DNA of 64,000 nucleotides from Chitinophaga pinensis (GTDB taxonomy: Bacteria > Bacteroidota > Bacteroidia > B-17B0 > Aurantibacillaceae): the NCBI GenBank assembly GCA_945860225.1, contig CAMAPT010000012.1, positions 1-64,000 of the forward strand, in the 5' to 3' direction. The notes under the pieces were generated by a model that ran no database searches, had not been told where the DNA came from, and worked only from the letters and a program-made list of their open reading frames with translations. The position numbers and the translations under genes are program-made. The stretch's first letter is position 1. Every line of letters begins with the position of its first letter. Below are positions 5,839 through 14,721 of this stretch, one piece after another.

Positions 5839-6801
5839 TTAAAAATCAAAGCTAGGACATTTTGTAATATTATACTGTTCATTATCAATTCCCATAAAAT
5901 TCATTAAGGGAGTTAAACCAATCATAAATTCAATAGTATTGGGTGCCACTTGATTAAGTTGATTAATACTATAATCGTATGAAAGACCAAACGTCATGTT
6001 TTTTAAAAACCTTACTTGAAGAATTCCTGAAACAAAATCTTTATTCCGTATGCTTATTCCTAAGCCTAGTCGTCTGAGATAATAAGTCATCATATTTAAC
6101 TCTACACTTGGGATGTTTGTAAAAGATGTGTGGATATTAAAAGCAGGAACAAATAAAACGCCGTTATTTAAAAGGTATTTGTTGCCAAATGAAACATACA
6201 ACTGAGGGACTAATAACGATTTGTGTCCGATTTGTTTATTGCCTTGAACCTGTCTGTTTTTATATAATTGTTTAACAGAGACATCTAAGAATTTTTTTTT
6301 GCTGTATATTCTCATACCTGGAATAAAATCAGGATAAGCTAAAAAATAATCGTCATAAGTAGCTGCAAACACAGGATCTGATTTTGAAATAGAAGCCTTG
6401 TCGACAGAAAAATTTTTGAGCCCACCAAAAATACCAAATGATAAGTATGTTTTTTTATTGAGAGGTAAATGAATCGTGTAGGAAAGGTAATACGAATCAT
6501 TTCTATAAATTCCGGCAGATTCATTAGCCAAATAAAATCCAAAATTATGCCAGTGCTTATAACTTCTTTCTGGTTTAATAGTATAATTAACACTTAAAAA
6601 ATTAGATGTAGGGGCACGATTGAGCCCAATCCATTGCTTTCTTCCTCCTATTATTAATTCTAAATTATTATTAATATTAGTTCCTGCTGCTGCAGGGTTA
6701 TAACCGTATTTATTAAACGTAAATTGTGTAAACTGTCCAGTTTGTTGACACCGAATACTTAATGTTAATCCTAATAAAATGATATAAAGGAAATGTTTCA
6801 T
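5839..6801 (-). CDS. PorP/SprF-family type IX secretion outer-membrane protein
   Basis: A 320-residue beta-barrel protein with an N-terminal signal peptide (about residues 1-19). The segment after it, QFTQFTFNKYGYNPAAAGT, is the hallmark of the PorP/SprF family, as is RKQWIGL. SprF-like proteins are needed for secretion of cargo with type-B C-terminal domains. The gene immediately upstream (6802-7347) encodes exactly such a cargo, with the two reading frames directly adjacent, so this protein is very likely its dedicated partner. It is distinct from the PorP encoded before gldK in this window. Confidence 0.88.
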   Translation of the reverse strand: MKHFLYIILLGLTLSIRCQQTGQFTQFTFNKYGYNPAAAGTNINNNLELIIGGRKQWIGLNRAPTSNFLSVNYTIKPERSYKHWHNFGFYLANESAGIYRNDSYYLSYTIHLPLNKKTYLSFGIFGGLKNFSVDKASISKSDPVFAATYDDYFLAYPDFIPGMRIYSKKKFLDVSVKQLYKNRQVQGNKQIGHKSLLVPQLYVSFGNKYLLNNGVLFVPAFNIHTSFTNIPSVELNMMTYYLRRLGLGISIRNKDFVSGILQVRFLKNMTFGLSYDYSINQLNQVAPNTIEFMIGLTPLMNFMGIDNEQYNITKCPSFDF

Positions 6802-7347
6802 TTATCTTATGATGTTAACATTACCTTTAATAAATTTACTTTTGTCTCCTTTGGAAAAATAAATAACATAATAATAAGCGGCATCCGGTAAAGGTAAATT
6901 TAAACTTCTACCATCCCAAGGTTCGTAATTTTTAGTTTGATGATGCACTTGTTGACCCCAACGATTATATACAAATAATTCAAAATCAGGAAATTTTTCG
7001 ATTCTTGCTATGTCCCATGTATCGTTGTAATCATCGCCATTAGGTGTAAAATGGCTTTCCGCAATGGGTTCACAAATTATTTCTCTCATAGTAAAATAAA
7101 CAACAGTGTCTTTATTTAAATCATATTGTATATTTATTGAATAATCTCCGGGACTTAATTCATCAATGTAATTGTTATGAGAGCCAGTACTCCAATTAAG
7201 TGAATAATTATTAGATCCCGAGATTGAGGCACTTGCCTTTCCTAATTCGCAAGGAACTTCATATTTTGATAGTACAATAGATAACGGTTGACTAACGACA
7301 TAGATGGTTTTGAATAAAAAAAATAAAATAGGAAATAAGCGCGTCAT
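6802..7347 (-). CDS. Small secreted protein with gliding-motility (type-B) C-terminal sorting domain
   Basis: A 181-residue protein with a signal peptide (about 1-19), a short beta-rich region, and a C-terminal sorting domain of about 85 residues. That domain begins HFTPNGDDYNDTWDI and contains FELFVYNRWGQQVH and YEPWDG, the conserved pattern of type-B (CHU_C-like) T9SS signals. The passenger between signal and sorting domain is only about 70 residues, small for this class. It overlaps the upstream TPR gene by four bases and abuts the PorP/SprF gene, suggesting one operon dedicated to its export. The passenger function is unknown. Confidence 0.85.
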   Translation of the reverse strand: MTRLFPILFFLFKTIYVVSQPLSIVLSKYEVPCELGKASASISGSNNYSLNWSTGSHNNYIDELSPGDYSINIQYDLNKDTVVYFTMREIICEPIAESHFTPNGDDYNDTWDIARIEKFPDFELFVYNRWGQQVHHQTKNYEPWDGRSLNLPLPDAAYYYVIYFSKGDKSKFIKGNVNIIR

Positions 7348-8045
7348 TGGCAGTAATTTTGAAAAAATTCAGAGGCAGTATTAATTCCCTCTGCATCTGC
7401 TTTTTTTAGTGTTTCACAGGCGTTAATTTTATTTCCAGTTTCATAATAAACATAGGCCAAGGCCAAATAAGCTTCGTTAAAATATTTATCCAAGGTAATT
7501 GTTTTTTGATAGTCGGAGATTGCTGCCTCAAAATTCCGCATCACTTCATACCAATAACCTCTGCTGTAATAAGCAAGGGTATAACTAGGATTAATGGATA
7601 TACATTTATTTAAATCTTCTATAGCACTTTTATAATCATCTAGCAGGGCTTTTGCTAAGGCCCTGTTATAAAGCGCTTTTTCATGTTTAGGATTATTATC
7701 AAGTACCGAATTGAAATTGGATATAGCAGAAGCATATTTACCTTTTAAGGCAAATAGTAATCCCTTTAAAAAGTAAACGTCTTCGTGTTTTGGATTTTTT
7801 TTTTGAAGTTGAGTAACGAGTTGATTAGCTTCATTGATGTGATGTTGTTTTATCAAAGAATAAGCTTGAGTATATAAAGTACTATCAGAAATTTCTTTAG
7901 TTAAAGAAGGCACAGTAAGATGATTGTCAGTCGTCAATTGCTGAAGAGTGTCTTGTACGGATGGATTACTATGTTGACCAAAACCAATAAAATAATTAAG
8001 TATAAAAAAAATTGCTACTATAATTTTTGAAATCCTTGTGTGCAT
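7344..8045 (-). CDS. Secreted or periplasmic TPR-repeat protein
   Basis: I chose ATG 8045 over an in-frame ATG at 8081, because from 8045 the protein starts with a clean signal peptide (MHTRISKIIVAIFFILNYF...) ending near GFGQ. The mature part has several tetratricopeptide repeats, for example NPKHEDVYFLKGLLFALKG and NPSYTLAYYSRGYWYE, which form a protein-binding scaffold. Its stop overlaps the start of the type-B cargo gene by four bases (ATGA). It probably acts in the periplasm with the cargo and SprF-like protein downstream, but its direct partner is not known. Confidence 0.8.
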   Translation of the reverse strand: MHTRISKIIVAIFFILNYFIGFGQHSNPSVQDTLQQLTTDNHLTVPSLTKEISDSTLYTQAYSLIKQHHINEANQLVTQLQKKNPKHEDVYFLKGLLFALKGKYASAISNFNSVLDNNPKHEKALYNRALAKALLDDYKSAIEDLNKCISINPSYTLAYYSRGYWYEVMRNFEAAISDYQKTITLDKYFNEAYLALAYVYYETGNKINACETLKKADAEGINTASEFFQNYCQ

Positions 8046-8119: not shown

Positions 8120-8133
8120 ATGAGATATCTCAT
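8120..8133. promoter_or_regulatory. Perfect 14-bp palindrome upstream of the TPR gene
   Basis: ATGAGATATCTCAT is a perfect palindrome centred on GATATC. It lies in the 117-bp space between the ispG stop and the start of the TPR/type-B cargo/SprF genes. It could be an operator for that group, but no regulator is identified and chance is possible in AT-rich DNA. Confidence 0.25.
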
Positions 8134-11106: not shown

Positions 11107-11154
11107 TCGCCCAAGTATTAAAATGATACAAAAAACTAAGCATATCTAGTGTAC

Positions 11155-12132
11155 ATGAATAAAATTTTATCCTTTTTGACGGTTGCTTTAATGTCTTTTA
11201 CAAGCGCCTTATTTGCACAACAAGATCCACAATTTACACAGTTTATGCATAGCAAATTGATTTATAATCCAGGTTATGCGGGTACTAGCGAGGCAATCTG
11301 CGCGAATGTATTGGCAAGACAACAGTGGGTAAGCTTTCCGGGTGCGCCAAAAACTGGTTTATTAAGTTTCGATATGCCTATTGGACAAATGCCAATAGCA
11401 ATAGGGTTAAATGTTATGAATGATCAAATTGGGTATGATAAAACTTTATTTGCACGTTTAGCATTGTCTTATAATCGTCGCATAGGTGCAGGTGTTTTGG
11501 GAGTTGGAGTTGATGGAGGGATTTTACAGAAACAATTTAATGGAGATTGGAAAGCTCCTGACGGGATAAGCGTTTACGATCCATCTATTCCATCTTATAT
11601 CTCAGGAACTGTGACTGCATCAAATCCAGCACTCAATAAATTGAGTTACGATTGTGGTTTTGGTGTTTTTTATTCTGTTGCTAATAAGATGTACTTAGGT
11701 ATATCTTCTACCCATTTGGCAGCTCAAGATATTAGTGCTAGTAGTAGTGTTTTATTTGCTTTAGCACGTCATTATTATATTGTTGGGGGTTATACTTTTA
11801 ATTTAGGCGAAGGTGGGCAACATGGGATTAATCCTAATATTAAAATAAAATCAGATGCGTCTTCCACTCAAGTTGATTTAAATATTACCTACATCTATAA
11901 TAAATTATTATGGGCAGGGCTAACGTATCGTATGCAAGATGCTATTGCTCCAATGGTAGGCTATAAATTCTTGAAAGATAGAAGTTTGAAAGTAGGATAT
12001 TCTTATGATTTGACTTTATCTAAAATAAAGGGCTATAGCTCTGGTACTCATGAAATTATGGCTGGATATTGCTTTGGAATAAAGAAAACTAAAAAGGTAA
12101 GTAGTTATCAAAATGCAAGATTTTTGGATTAA
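11155..12132 (+). CDS. porP: PorP/SprF-family type IX secretion protein, first gene of the motor operon
   Basis: I start at ATG 11155 rather than the in-frame GTG at 11149. The product (325 residues) then begins with a signal peptide MNKILSFLTVALMSFTSALF and is cut after AQ. The mature start, QQDPQFTQFMHSKLIYNPGYAGT, is the PorP/SprF signature. The protein is predicted to be an outer-membrane beta-barrel. It precedes gldK-gldL-gldM-gldN exactly as porP precedes porKLMN in Porphyromonas gingivalis. In P. gingivalis PorP is needed for type IX secretion and associates with the PorK/PorN ring; the same role is inferred here. Confidence 0.92.
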   Translation: MNKILSFLTVALMSFTSALFAQQDPQFTQFMHSKLIYNPGYAGTSEAICANVLARQQWVSFPGAPKTGLLSFDMPIGQMPIAIGLNVMNDQIGYDKTLFARLALSYNRRIGAGVLGVGVDGGILQKQFNGDWKAPDGISVYDPSIPSYISGTVTASNPALNKLSYDCGFGVFYSVANKMYLGISSTHLAAQDISASSSVLFALARHYYIVGGYTFNLGEGGQHGINPNIKIKSDASSTQVDLNITYIYNKLLWAGLTYRMQDAIAPMVGYKFLKDRSLKVGYSYDLTLSKIKGYSSGTHEIMAGYCFGIKKTKKVSSYQNARFLD

Positions 12133-12303
12133 TTGTAACTTTTTCAAATAATACACGTTTAAATCCCTTAAAAACTTGTCTCTTTTGTTTATAACATGTT
12201 GATAAAAGTTATTGTAACGAAATATAAAGTTGGAGTTATAAATAAAAAAGTGAAACAAAAAATATTTAAGTTTCCTTATTAGACAAACTATACAAAAATC
12301 ACT

Positions 12304-13851
12304 ATGAAAAAACTGATTGTATTAGCTTCATTTATAGCAGTTGTTACGGGATGTAACAAAAAGGCTGGAGAATTGGTTGGGGTTACTGATAGAGAAAAAT
12401 GGTTTCAGCCTGATCCGTTTGGTACTTTATATGTTCCTATGGGTAGCTATCACATGGGGCCAAGTGATGAAGAGGTAACTACAGCTCATACAGCTAAATC
12501 AAAAATGGTTTCTGTTCAGGCTTTTTATATTGATGATTCAGAGATTTCCAATAATGAGTACCGACAATTCGTGTATTGGGTTCGTGACTCTATCGCTCGT
12601 AAACTATTGGCATTTGGATCTAATGGAGACGCTGAAGATTATCAAATTTCTCAAGAAGACTTTTTAAATATGTGGCCTGTTTATAAGACAGATCAGAATT
12701 TACAAGATCCCTATATTAATTGGTCAACAAAAATCAAATGGGATAGTGATGATGAAGACTATAGAACAGATTTACAGCCGTTGTATCTACCCGAATCAGA
12801 ACGTTTTTATAATAGAAAAGAAATAGATACGCGTAAGTTAAATTATGAGTACTATAGGATAGATATCAGATTGGCAGCTTCAAGATCTAATCGATTTGTC
12901 AGACAAAAATCAACAGATACCCAAGATCCGACTCATGAATATAAAAAGGCGGACTATATAAATGGGGTTCATACTAACGAGGGGCAAAATGGTACTCCTG
13001 GGGCACCTTCAACACCGGTTGGGGATCCAGCAAAAGATCCAAAGACATTGGGAACATATAATGTTGAAGATTTGGTGTCTACCGGTGTTGAAAACCCTCC
13101 CATCCAACGTTCTCGAAAAGGAGTAGACCGTTCAGTATTTATATTGAAAGATGTCATCAATGTTTATCCTGATACATTAGCTTGGGTTCACGATTTCACT
13201 TATTCTTTTAATGAGCCAATGACTAATATGTATTTTTGGCATCCTGCTTATGACGATTATCCTGTTGTTGGTGTAACATGGAAACAAGCTCGTGCATTCA
13301 GTATATGGCGTTCTAATTTATTAAATAATTATTTAGTTGGAGAGGGTATGTCTATTGTGAATGATTTTAGATTGCCAACTGAGTCTGAATGGGAATATGC
13401 AGCTCGTGGGGGTAACGAATTATCTCCATATCCCTGGGGAGGACCATACATTAGAAATGCTAAAGGATGTTTCTTAGGCAATTTTAAACCCATGAGAGGC
13501 TCATATATTGATGATGGAGGTTTTCATACTGTGTATGTTTATTCATATAATCCGAATGATTTTGGTTTGTACTGCATGGCTGGAAACGTAGCAGAATGGA
13601 CAAGTAATGCGTTTGATGAGTCTGCTTATGATTTCTCTCACGACTTAAATCCTGATTACGTTTACGAGGCGCAAGATAGAGATGCAGATGTTTTGAAACG
13701 TAAAGTAATACGTGGAGGTTCTTGGAAAGATGTAGGTTATTATTTACAAGTTAGTTCAAGAACGTATGAATATCAGGATACAGCTAAAGCATATATTGGG
13801 TTCCGTAATGTTATGACTTATTTAGGTCGTTCAAAAGGGGATGAAATTTAA
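12304..13851 (+). CDS. gldK: T9SS ring lipoprotein GldK/PorK
   Basis: A 515-residue lipoprotein with lipobox VVTGC (Cys17). The mature protein has the formylglycine-generating-enzyme (sulfatase-modifying factor) fold, seen in FRLPTESEWEYAARGG and FGLYCMAGNVAEWTSNAF, but this family acts structurally. With GldN it forms the large periplasmic ring under the outer membrane in the type IX machine. A glycine/proline-rich stretch near residues 218-250 (for example NGTPGAPSTPVGDPAKDP) looks like a flexible loop. The spacing of 171 bp from porP allows an extra promoter, but none is convincing. Confidence 0.95.
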   Translation: MKKLIVLASFIAVVTGCNKKAGELVGVTDREKWFQPDPFGTLYVPMGSYHMGPSDEEVTTAHTAKSKMVSVQAFYIDDSEISNNEYRQFVYWVRDSIARKLLAFGSNGDAEDYQISQEDFLNMWPVYKTDQNLQDPYINWSTKIKWDSDDEDYRTDLQPLYLPESERFYNRKEIDTRKLNYEYYRIDIRLAASRSNRFVRQKSTDTQDPTHEYKKADYINGVHTNEGQNGTPGAPSTPVGDPAKDPKTLGTYNVEDLVSTGVENPPIQRSRKGVDRSVFILKDVINVYPDTLAWVHDFTYSFNEPMTNMYFWHPAYDDYPVVGVTWKQARAFSIWRSNLLNNYLVGEGMSIVNDFRLPTESEWEYAARGGNELSPYPWGGPYIRNAKGCFLGNFKPMRGSYIDDGGFHTVYVYSYNPNDFGLYCMAGNVAEWTSNAFDESAYDFSHDLNPDYVYEAQDRDADVLKRKVIRGGSWKDVGYYLQVSSRTYEYQDTAKAYIGFRNVMTYLGRSKGDEI

Positions 13852-13899
13852 TAGATAATAATTAATCAAAATCAAATAACAACTAAAAACAACTAAATT

Positions 13900-14721
13900 A
13901 TGAGTTCATTACCTAAAATAACTGGTTTTAAAAAGTTTATGCACTTAGCATCATGTTTTGGTGCGGCGATTGTAATCGTTGGGGCTTTGTTTAAAATTAT
14001 GCACTGGCCTGGTTCTAATATAGCCATCATTGCAGGACTTGGTACAGAAGCTGTACTATTTATCTTATTTGGTGTTGATGTTCCACATGAAGAATATGAT
14101 TGGACTTTACCGTATCCTGAGTTAGCAGGAATGGGCGGTCATGGTCATAATCATGATGACCATGAAGAATCTCATCACGAAGAAACAAAATCTATCGAAC
14201 CAGTATCATCTCAATTAGATGCTATGTTAGCTGAAGCAAAAATAGGTCCTGAATTAATTGAAAGTTTAGGGACAGGTATGCGTTCATTAAGCGATACGGC
14301 TTCTAAAATTGGTGACATTAGTAATGCAGCAGTAGCTACTAATGAATACGTTGATAGCGTTAAAAATGCTTCTAAAAATGTAGCTCATTTAGCAGACACA
14401 TATAGCAAAGCTGCAGATTCTATCGCTAGTTTAGCAGAATCAAACGATGCGGGTTCTTCTATTGGAGGTTCTTTAAATAATGTAGCCAAAAATTTATCTG
14501 CTTTAAATGCTACTTATGAATTGCAATTACAAGGTTCTCGTACTCATTTAGAAGCTACTGAGAAATTTTATGAAGGTTTGGCTGATTTGATGAAAAATTT
14601 ACATGATTCAGTTGATGATACTAAAAAATACCGTGCTGAAATGGCTCAATTATCAACTAACTTAACTGCCTTAAATACAATTTATGGCAATATGTTGGGT
14701 GCTATGAATTTCAATAAATAA
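13900..14721 (+). CDS. gldL: T9SS/gliding inner-membrane motor protein GldL
   Basis: A 273-residue protein with two transmembrane helices near the N-terminus (about 14-34 and 41-59) and a long cytoplasmic helical tail. GldL with GldM forms the proton-driven motor that powers type IX secretion and gliding. Lys32 in GALFKIMHW and Glu50 in GLGTEAV correspond to the membrane-embedded Lys27 and Glu49 of Flavobacterium johnsoniae GldL. Unusually, the segment just after helix 2 is histidine-rich (MGGHGHNHDDHEESHHEE), which could bind a metal. Coiled-coil sequence follows, with many heptad-like Leu/Ala positions. Confidence 0.94.
   Translation: MSSLPKITGFKKFMHLASCFGAAIVIVGALFKIMHWPGSNIAIIAGLGTEAVLFILFGVDVPHEEYDWTLPYPELAGMGGHGHNHDDHEESHHEETKSIEPVSSQLDAMLAEAKIGPELIESLGTGMRSLSDTASKIGDISNAAVATNEYVDSVKNASKNVAHLADTYSKAADSIASLAESNDAGSSIGGSLNNVAKNLSALNATYELQLQGSRTHLEATEKFYEGLADLMKNLHDSVDDTKKYRAEMAQLSTNLTALNTIYGNMLGAMNFNK

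What the first reader, a model, noticed from the sequence alone, without database searches (positions are those of the whole stretch)
5839..8045. TPR protein, small type-B T9SS cargo and its own SprF-like partner as one set
The genes overlap or abut. The cargo passenger is only about 70 residues, and the PorP/SprF gene follows directly. Type-B sorting domains are known to need SprF-like proteins, so this looks like a self-contained secretion unit with a periplasmic TPR protein added. The TPR member is not a standard part and may be a new cargo-specific factor.
Basis: partly seen in the sequence, partly recalled or inferred. Interest (0 to 1): 0.6.

Follow-up and report, generated by a model that had tools for sequence, protein, structure and literature searches.

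The report
Mini-adhesin secretion trio with TPR partner
Three neighbouring genes encode a very small secreted surface protein, the outer-membrane carrier that holds it and a helper protein; uncultured relatives of this bacterium keep or lose them largely as a set, so they probably work together.

Summary
On the minus strand lie a TPR protein (7344-8045), a 181-aa type-B T9SS cargo (6802-7347) and a PorP/SprF-family carrier (5839-6801), overlapping by 4 nt and abutting. The set is a real, inherited module. Of 150 relatives, 66 hold at least one member and 51 all three, 27 in full linked order. All 20 TPR-bearing genomes sampled outside the family keep the TPR directly upstream of a type-B cargo. 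In 65 good family genomes cargo and carrier co-occur (48 both, 1 cargo only, 0 carrier only, 16 neither). In 24 genomes links are broken yet all three persist: the TPR is with the carrier in 15, with the cargo in 3, alone in 6, so it is not simply 'cargo-specific'. It is an accessory: 10 of 48 genomes with cargo and carrier lack it. The cargo is one Ig-like domain plus CTD; its counterpart in another family has 11 SprB repeats. The carrier keeps one C-tail cysteine (82 of 83), as expected if it is disulfide-tethered to GldK, whose cysteine is invariant (60 of 60). Best reading: a miniaturised SprB/SprF-type surface unit with a carrier-side TPR. Function is untested.

The parts
7344..8045 (-). 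TPR protein, 233 aa, apparent signal peptide without lipobox (by eye), TPR repeats plus capping helix; start could also be 8081
   Evidence: AF2 model mean pLDDT 78.7, residues 1-50 unreliable; orthologue profile A2
6802..7347 (-). small type-B T9SS cargo, 181 aa; overlaps the TPR gene by 4 nt
   Evidence: conserved at full length in relatives
7072..7287 (-). cargo passenger (residues 21-92), one predicted Ig-like domain with C33 and C92 conserved in all 21 aligned orthologues
6805..7059 (-). type-B C-terminal sorting domain (residues 97-181)
   Evidence: TIGR04131 68.3 bits; model residues 91-181 match T9SS CTDs of PorZ (Z 9.4) and NucA (Z 9.2)
5839..6801 (-). PorP/SprF-family outer-membrane carrier, 320 aa, directly after the cargo
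   Evidence: orthologue profile A5
5857..5859 (-). SprF C-tail cysteine 315 (C-P-S-F-D-F at the C-terminus)
   Evidence: 82 of 83 distinct orthologues keep the tail Cys
7350..7418 (-). stretch that holds both invariant TPR cysteines, C210 (7416-7418) and C232 (7350-7352), the second-last residue
   Evidence: invariant in 23 of 23 aligned orthologues, but also present in most unlinked TPR proteins
13468..13470 (+). GldK (12304-13851) cysteine 389, candidate attachment point for the SprF tail
   Evidence: Cys in 60 of 60 aligned GldK; conserved in PorK; GldK 565 bits, cut-off 350

Best explanation
The three genes make one dedicated surface unit of the type IX secretion/gliding system. The cargo, a minimal SprB-like protein (one Ig-like domain plus type-B CTD), is exported by the T9SS translocon and stays bound outside to its own SprF barrel. 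SprF's periplasmic C-tail carries one conserved cysteine, which probably ties the unit by a disulfide to GldK Cys389, as shown for F. johnsoniae SprF. The TPR protein stays in the periplasm and most likely binds the periplasmic face of SprF as an adaptor or assembly factor, doing for this carrier what the TPR domain of PorE may do for PorP. Shown here: gene order, conservation, joint presence and loss, the SprF duplication, conserved cysteines. Inferred: secretion, binding, the disulfide, the TPR's role.
For: Cargo and SprF co-occur almost perfectly in 65 good family genomes: 48 both, 1 cargo only, 0 SprF only, 16 neither. Cargo and TPR: 38 both, 11 cargo only, 1 TPR only, 15 neither. On a GldK tree of 60 genomes the presence of the module changes at least 8 times (4 forced by firmly supported branches); in the independent pairs drawn for the cargo, neither SprF nor TPR ever goes the other way. 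All three can persist when links break: 15 genomes with SprF-TPR, 3 with TPR-cargo, 6 with the TPR alone. In 8 g2 genomes the cargo has no SprF beside it and SprF sits beside the TPR elsewhere. SprF1 and SprF2 look like a duplication within g2. Outside the family 20 of 20 TPR genes lie directly upstream of a type-B cargo. SprB repeats in the matching cargo: 11 in f25, 2 in f16. SprF tail Cys 82 of 83; GldK Cys389 60 of 60. Type-B cargo held by a PorP/SprF protein: PMC9143113. SprF-GldK disulfide: PMC12635249.
Against: No binding, secretion or disulfide was measured. The TPR is absent from 10 of 48 good family genomes that keep cargo and SprF, so it is not required there. Its two invariant cysteines and C-terminal motif are generic: 15 of 16 unlinked TPR proteins examined have them. 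The TPR-with-SprF arrangement in g2 may rest on one event, as may TPR-with-cargo in g5. Co-occurrence P-values (5e-7 to 3e-14) ignore relatedness; the relatedness-aware test has 5 pairs and cannot reach 0.05. The SprF tail has one cysteine, not the Cys-X-Cys of F. johnsoniae. Cys-tailed carriers also occur beside cargos without this TPR (17 of 37 complete SprF tails examined have a Cys; only 2 of the 80 loci have the TPR), so the tail says nothing about the TPR.
Confidence: 0.55

Rival explanations
1. The TPR is a periplasmic chaperone of the cargo: it holds the unfolded cargo or its CTD before export and hands it to the translocon or SprF.
For: In the linked order the TPR is next to the cargo, overlapping it by 4 nt in 7 of the 9 g1 loci. 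In g5 it stays with the cargo while SprF is elsewhere (3 genomes). Its best NCBIfam hits include a type III secretion chaperone TPR, far below cut-off.
Against: In g2 it stays with SprF, not with the cargo (15 genomes with all three). Ten good genomes with cargo and SprF lack it.
Confidence: 0.22
2. The mini-cargo is not an adhesin but a structural cap on its barrel, as suggested for P. gingivalis PG1035 on PorP (PMC9143113); the TPR then links the capped barrel to the periplasmic machinery.
For: One Ig-like domain is very short for an adhesin, and the length is nearly constant in most family loci. In nine g1 genomes the trio is within about 6 kb of gldK.
Against: The matching cargo in f25 is 960 aa with 11 SprB repeats, and in f16 it has 2, which points to an adhesin stalk shortened over time.
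Confidence: 0.25
3. Ordinary neighbours kept by synteny; the TPR is a generic TPR protein without functional tie.
For: TPR genes are numerous (43 to 207 first-look candidates in the family genomes listed) and the C-terminal motif is generic. In g1 the block ispG-TPR-cargo-SprF-RecD-like is conserved as a whole.
Against: The trio recurs in different genomic contexts (after ispG in g1, after a purL-like gene in f16, f38 and several f1 genera), and all three persist when not all linked in 24 genomes. Whole-set losses recur.
Confidence: 0.06

Closest known systems
PorE-PorP-PG1035 complex of P. gingivalis (PMC9143113)
   Same: Type-B CTD protein held by a PorP-family barrel, with a periplasmic partner that has a TPR domain.
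   Different: PorE is a lipoprotein with TPR, beta-propeller, carboxypeptidase-regulatory-like and OmpA-like domains (about 78 kDa); here the TPR is a small separate protein with no PorE-model match at E 1e-3. PG1035 runs at about 50 kDa; this cargo is 181 aa.
SprB-SprF of F. johnsoniae (PMC12635249, PMC12618676)
   Same: Type-B cargo with a cognate SprF; cysteine in the SprF C-tail; GldK with a conserved cysteine.
   Different: SprB is huge with many repeats, this cargo has one Ig-like domain; SprF there has Cys-X-Cys, here one Cys; a find for 'TPR' gave no occurrence in either paper.
PorE-like / type-B / SprF operons of F. johnsoniae (PMC12618676, PMC9143113)
   Same: Gene sets of a TPR-containing periplasmic protein, a type-B substrate and an SprF-like shuttle.
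   Different: There the partner is a multidomain PorE homologue; such a set also exists in this genome at another place (L351), separate from this trio.

Membership tests
T9SS type-B cargo | C-terminal type-B sorting domain over the curated cut-off, at the very C-terminus | tested here: met
   TIGR04131 68.3 bits, cut-off 35, residues 97-181 of 181; PF13585 74.5, cut-off 27
T9SS type-B cargo | exported to the cell surface by the T9SS | not testable with these tools
   T9SS genes are present in the genome: porP, gldK and gldL in the window; C25 peptidase (PorU-like), PorV and GldJ-like elsewhere. Export itself not tested.
PorP/SprF family | TIGR03519 / PF11751 over cut-off | tested here: met
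   155.2 (cut-off 90.55) and 144.7 (cut-off 22.3)
track-tethered SprF (as F. johnsoniae SprF) | Cys-X-Cys motif in the periplasmic C-tail | tested here: not met
   one tail cysteine only; 82 of 83 orthologues keep a tail Cys
track-tethered SprF (as F. johnsoniae SprF) | conserved partner cysteine in GldK | tested here: met
   C389 column is Cys in 60 of 60 GldK, also conserved in PorK; that it equals F. johnsoniae Cys343 is inferred
track-tethered SprF (as F. johnsoniae SprF) | disulfide to GldK | not testable with these tools
   needs a cell experiment
PorE | TPR plus beta-propeller, carboxypeptidase-regulatory-like and OmpA-like domains; NF052230 over cut-off | tested here: not met
   TPR protein is 233 aa; NF052230 not among its matches at E 1e-3
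PorW/SprE | NF052312 over cut-off 250 | tested here: not met
   26.6 bits
SprB-type adhesin | SprB repeats (PF13573) | tested here: inconclusive
   not reported for the window cargo at E up to 1; 11 stretches in the f25 cargo, 2 in f16, one sub-threshold in f38; the window passenger is a predicted Ig-like domain

The most novel reading that the evidence does not exclude
The TPR protein is a dedicated thiol/disulfide partner of this carrier. F. johnsoniae SprF is thought to use its own Cys-X-Cys disulfide as donor for the bond to GldK; this SprF has only one tail cysteine, and the TPR's terminal cysteine pair (C210/C232) could supply the disulfide, so that the TPR loads a single-cysteine carrier onto the moving GldK track.
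Probability: 0.08. Interest if true: 0.85.

Novelty: new variant of a known kind. Interest (0 to 1): 0.48.

Why it matters
Type-B cargos and their SprF carriers are known pairs; a small free-standing TPR protein inherited with one such pair was not seen in the listings of the paper searches made here. The set offers a very small natural SprB-like cargo for testing what a carrier needs, and relatives with 11, 2 and 1 repeat-like domains give a natural series for separating export, anchoring and track movement. The TPR could show what occupies the periplasmic face of an SprF barrel.

Tried and rejected
TPR cysteines as a signature of the trio: rejected, since 15 of 16 unlinked TPR proteins carry the same paired-cysteine C-terminal motif.

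SprF tail length as a sign of TPR binding: the tail after the Cys is 5-7 residues in 53 of 54 TPR-adjacent SprF (the other, L313, lacks the Cys) and 2 residues in 22 of 26 cargo-only ones, but on the tree the short tail changes once against the TPR-only group, so it is probably one event. G020 and G035 have long tails without a TPR, and G053, G056, G058, G061, G062 and G065 have a TPR with a short-tailed SprF only. Not used.

A 14-base palindrome upstream of the TPR gene: not seen upstream of the TPR in the other 14 loci printed.

Solved structures: no PDB sequence match for the SprF profile; the cargo profile found only the CTD region of a grappling-hook protein and one marginal hit. Whole-cargo Foldseek rows are poor two-Ig alignments; only the domain-wise VIA rows were used.

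No cultured carrier of the trio was found.

Rows dropped before counts. From the TPR rows G137 and G132 (145 and 142 bits, no cargo or SprF beside them), leaving 53 of 55. From the SprF rows G094, G116 and G138 (240-260 bits, other families). From only cargo rows of E about 5e-23 or better with a short frame, plus G110's long cargo; G110:C64 and longer frames were dropped. In the GldK tree 58 of the 65 good family genomes plus 2 f21 genomes were used; in the other 7 GldK was missing, partial or split. In one search the presence labels were wrong through a script error (every genome labelled as having all three); the tree was relabelled and only that is used.

Full report
Observation. TPR and cargo overlap by 4 nt and SprF starts directly after the cargo. 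The cargo ends in a type-B sorting domain (TIGR04131 68.3 bits, cut-off 35) and the third gene is a PorP/SprF-family barrel (TIGR03519 155.2, cut-off 90.55). Signal peptides are judged by eye. Upstream lies ispG, downstream a RecD-like ATPase, and about 3 kb further up, on the other strand, a second PorP gene followed by gldK and gldL.

The cargo. AlphaFold2 (mean pLDDT 91.2) gives two sandwich-like parts: residues about 22-92 and the CTD, 93-181. The CTD matches T9SS CTDs of PorZ (Z 9.4, rmsd 2.7, 85 residues) and NucA (Z 9.2, rmsd 1.9, 73 residues); residues 22-92 match single Ig or PKD domains at Z about 7, which is an ordinary value. In 21 aligned orthologues C33 and C92 are invariant. Pfam does not report an SprB repeat in the window cargo at E up to 1. 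The matching cargo in family f25 (G110, 960 aa) has 11 SprB stretches and that in f16 (268 aa) has 2, with one sub-threshold match in f38. I infer that the window cargo is a stalk reduced to one repeat-like domain.

Conservation within the family. A search of 150 relatives found type-B hits in 147 genomes, most of them only through the CTD; I took the full-length orthologues. In 60 fetched loci a TPR gene lies directly upstream in 25 and SprF directly downstream in 47. Thirteen of the 30 best loci are from genus g1, and all 13 show ispG-TPR-cargo-SprF-RecD-like.

Putting the three searches together (matrix), 66 of 150 genomes hold at least one member. They are: 27 full trio; 7 cargo-SprF plus SprF-TPR; 8 cargo without SprF beside it plus SprF-TPR elsewhere; 3 TPR-cargo with SprF elsewhere; 6 cargo-SprF with TPR alone; 11 cargo-SprF without TPR; 2 cargo only (G055 and G082); 1 SprF-TPR without cargo (G081, 81% complete); 1 TPR only (G070). 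So 51 hold all three, and 24 of these keep all three although they are not all linked.

In the 65 family genomes at least 90% complete: cargo and SprF both 48, cargo only 1, SprF only 0, neither 16; cargo and TPR both 38, cargo only 11, TPR only 1, neither 15. Fisher values are tiny but ignore relatedness. On a GldK tree of 60 genomes the presence of the module changes at least 8 times, 4 of them forced by firmly supported branches. With relatedness respected there are 5 independent pairs for the cargo: on average SprF goes the same way in 4.8 and TPR in 3.5, and neither ever goes the other way; the sign tests (median p 0.06 and 0.125) cannot reach 0.05.

Beyond the family. In 396 class genomes the TPR profile at E 1e-45 finds 27 genomes, 20 of them outside the family, in f16, f21, f25, f38 and f55. 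In all 20 the TPR lies directly upstream of a type-B cargo; SprF directly downstream of the cargo is seen in 19, and in G153 the stretch fetched ends before that point. In f16, f38 and several genera of the window's family the gene before the TPR looks like purL (named by eye from its sequence), in g1 it is ispG, so the genomic place changes and the trio does not. As background, of 80 type-B loci fetched by similarity only the 2 orthologous ones have a gene matching this TPR profile beside the cargo, and 37 have a complete SprF directly downstream.

SprF duplication. A tree of 83 SprF orthologues plus PorP broadly follows families and genera. In g2 (with the single g4 genome G022) the cargo-linked copies and the TPR-linked copies form two well-supported groups (100/100 each) lying side by side (join 88/61), so I read them as a duplication. 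After it, one copy stayed with the cargo and one with the TPR. In the 8 genomes of this group where the cargo has no SprF beside it but SprF is kept, that SprF is the TPR-linked copy. This argues that TPR and SprF form a working pair, but it may be one evolutionary event, and g5 shows the opposite linkage.

Cysteines. The SprF C-tail has a single cysteine in 82 of 83 orthologues; L313 has serine. In F. johnsoniae the SprF tail Cys-X-Cys is disulfide-bonded to GldK Cys343 (PMC12635249: abstract, passages and part 1 of 2 of the discussion read). The window's GldK has C389 in a motif shared with PorK and invariant in 60 of 60 GldK. In this genome another SprF-like protein ending S-C-P-S-F lies directly upstream of a GldJ-like gene (455.9 bits, cut-off 458.2), and a third ending C-P-I-Y-M lies beside a PorE-like gene, so cysteine tails are a feature of some carriers only. 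They occur in 17 of 37 complete SprF proteins beside type-B cargos. I take this SprF as a probable track-tethered carrier; the bond is inferred.

The TPR. It is not PorE and not PorW/SprE by the models tried. Its model is a regular TPR stack closest to MamA among solved structures, which says little about function. C210 and C232 lie on opposite arms of the last helical hairpin (inferred from the helix positions; no coordinates were at hand) and probably bond to each other; most unlinked TPR proteins share the pair. Ten of 48 good family genomes with cargo and SprF lack the TPR, so it is an accessory there.

Literature. Type-B cargos bind PorP/SprF proteins, and PorE, which has a TPR domain, binds PorP (PMC9143113: abstract, discussion and passages). 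Type-B substrates need cognate shuttles, and five F. johnsoniae operons join a PorE homologue, a type-B substrate and a shuttle (PMC12618676: abstract and passages). PMC9950754 was read in passages only. Searches for SprF with tetratricopeptide or TPR, for PorP-like with type B CTD and TPR, and for SprB repeat with PorP showed no description of this trio in their listings and abstract starts; the listed papers other than those named were not opened, and subscription papers such as the original F. johnsoniae type-B work are not held.

Verdict. A real, conserved module and a new variant of the type-B cargo/SprF pair, with a miniaturised cargo and a free TPR accessory.

Noticed in passing
window 11149-14721: Canonical porP-gldK-gldL lies about 3 kb from the trio on the other strand. 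In 9 of 13 g1 trio genomes gldK is on the same contig within about 6 kb of the trio (coordinates).
   Followed up: partly
L349 1783-4463: In the window's genome an SprF-like gene ending S-C-P-S-F lies directly upstream of a GldJ-like gene, without a type-B cargo beside it; C25 peptidase (PorU-like) and PorV genes follow on the other strand.
   Followed up: partly
L351 2-4001: Another type-B cargo / SprF-like (tail R-I-C-P-I-Y-M) / PorE-like set in the window's genome.
   Followed up: partly
window 8120-8133: Perfect palindrome ATGAGATATCTCAT between ispG and the TPR gene; not seen in the other 14 loci printed.
   Followed up: yes
L313 2113-3102: The single SprF orthologue without the tail cysteine (G069, tail K-S-P-T-L-D-Y), on a long branch.
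   Followed up: no
L326 2760-6342: The f25 cargo of the same trio is 960 aa with 11 SprB repeats, next to a TPR whose C-terminus is extended beyond its last cysteine.
   Followed up: partly
L329 2571-4100 and L330 2965-4477: In g5 the SprF separated from the TPR-cargo pair follows a 174-176 aa protein of unknown function on the same strand.
   Followed up: no
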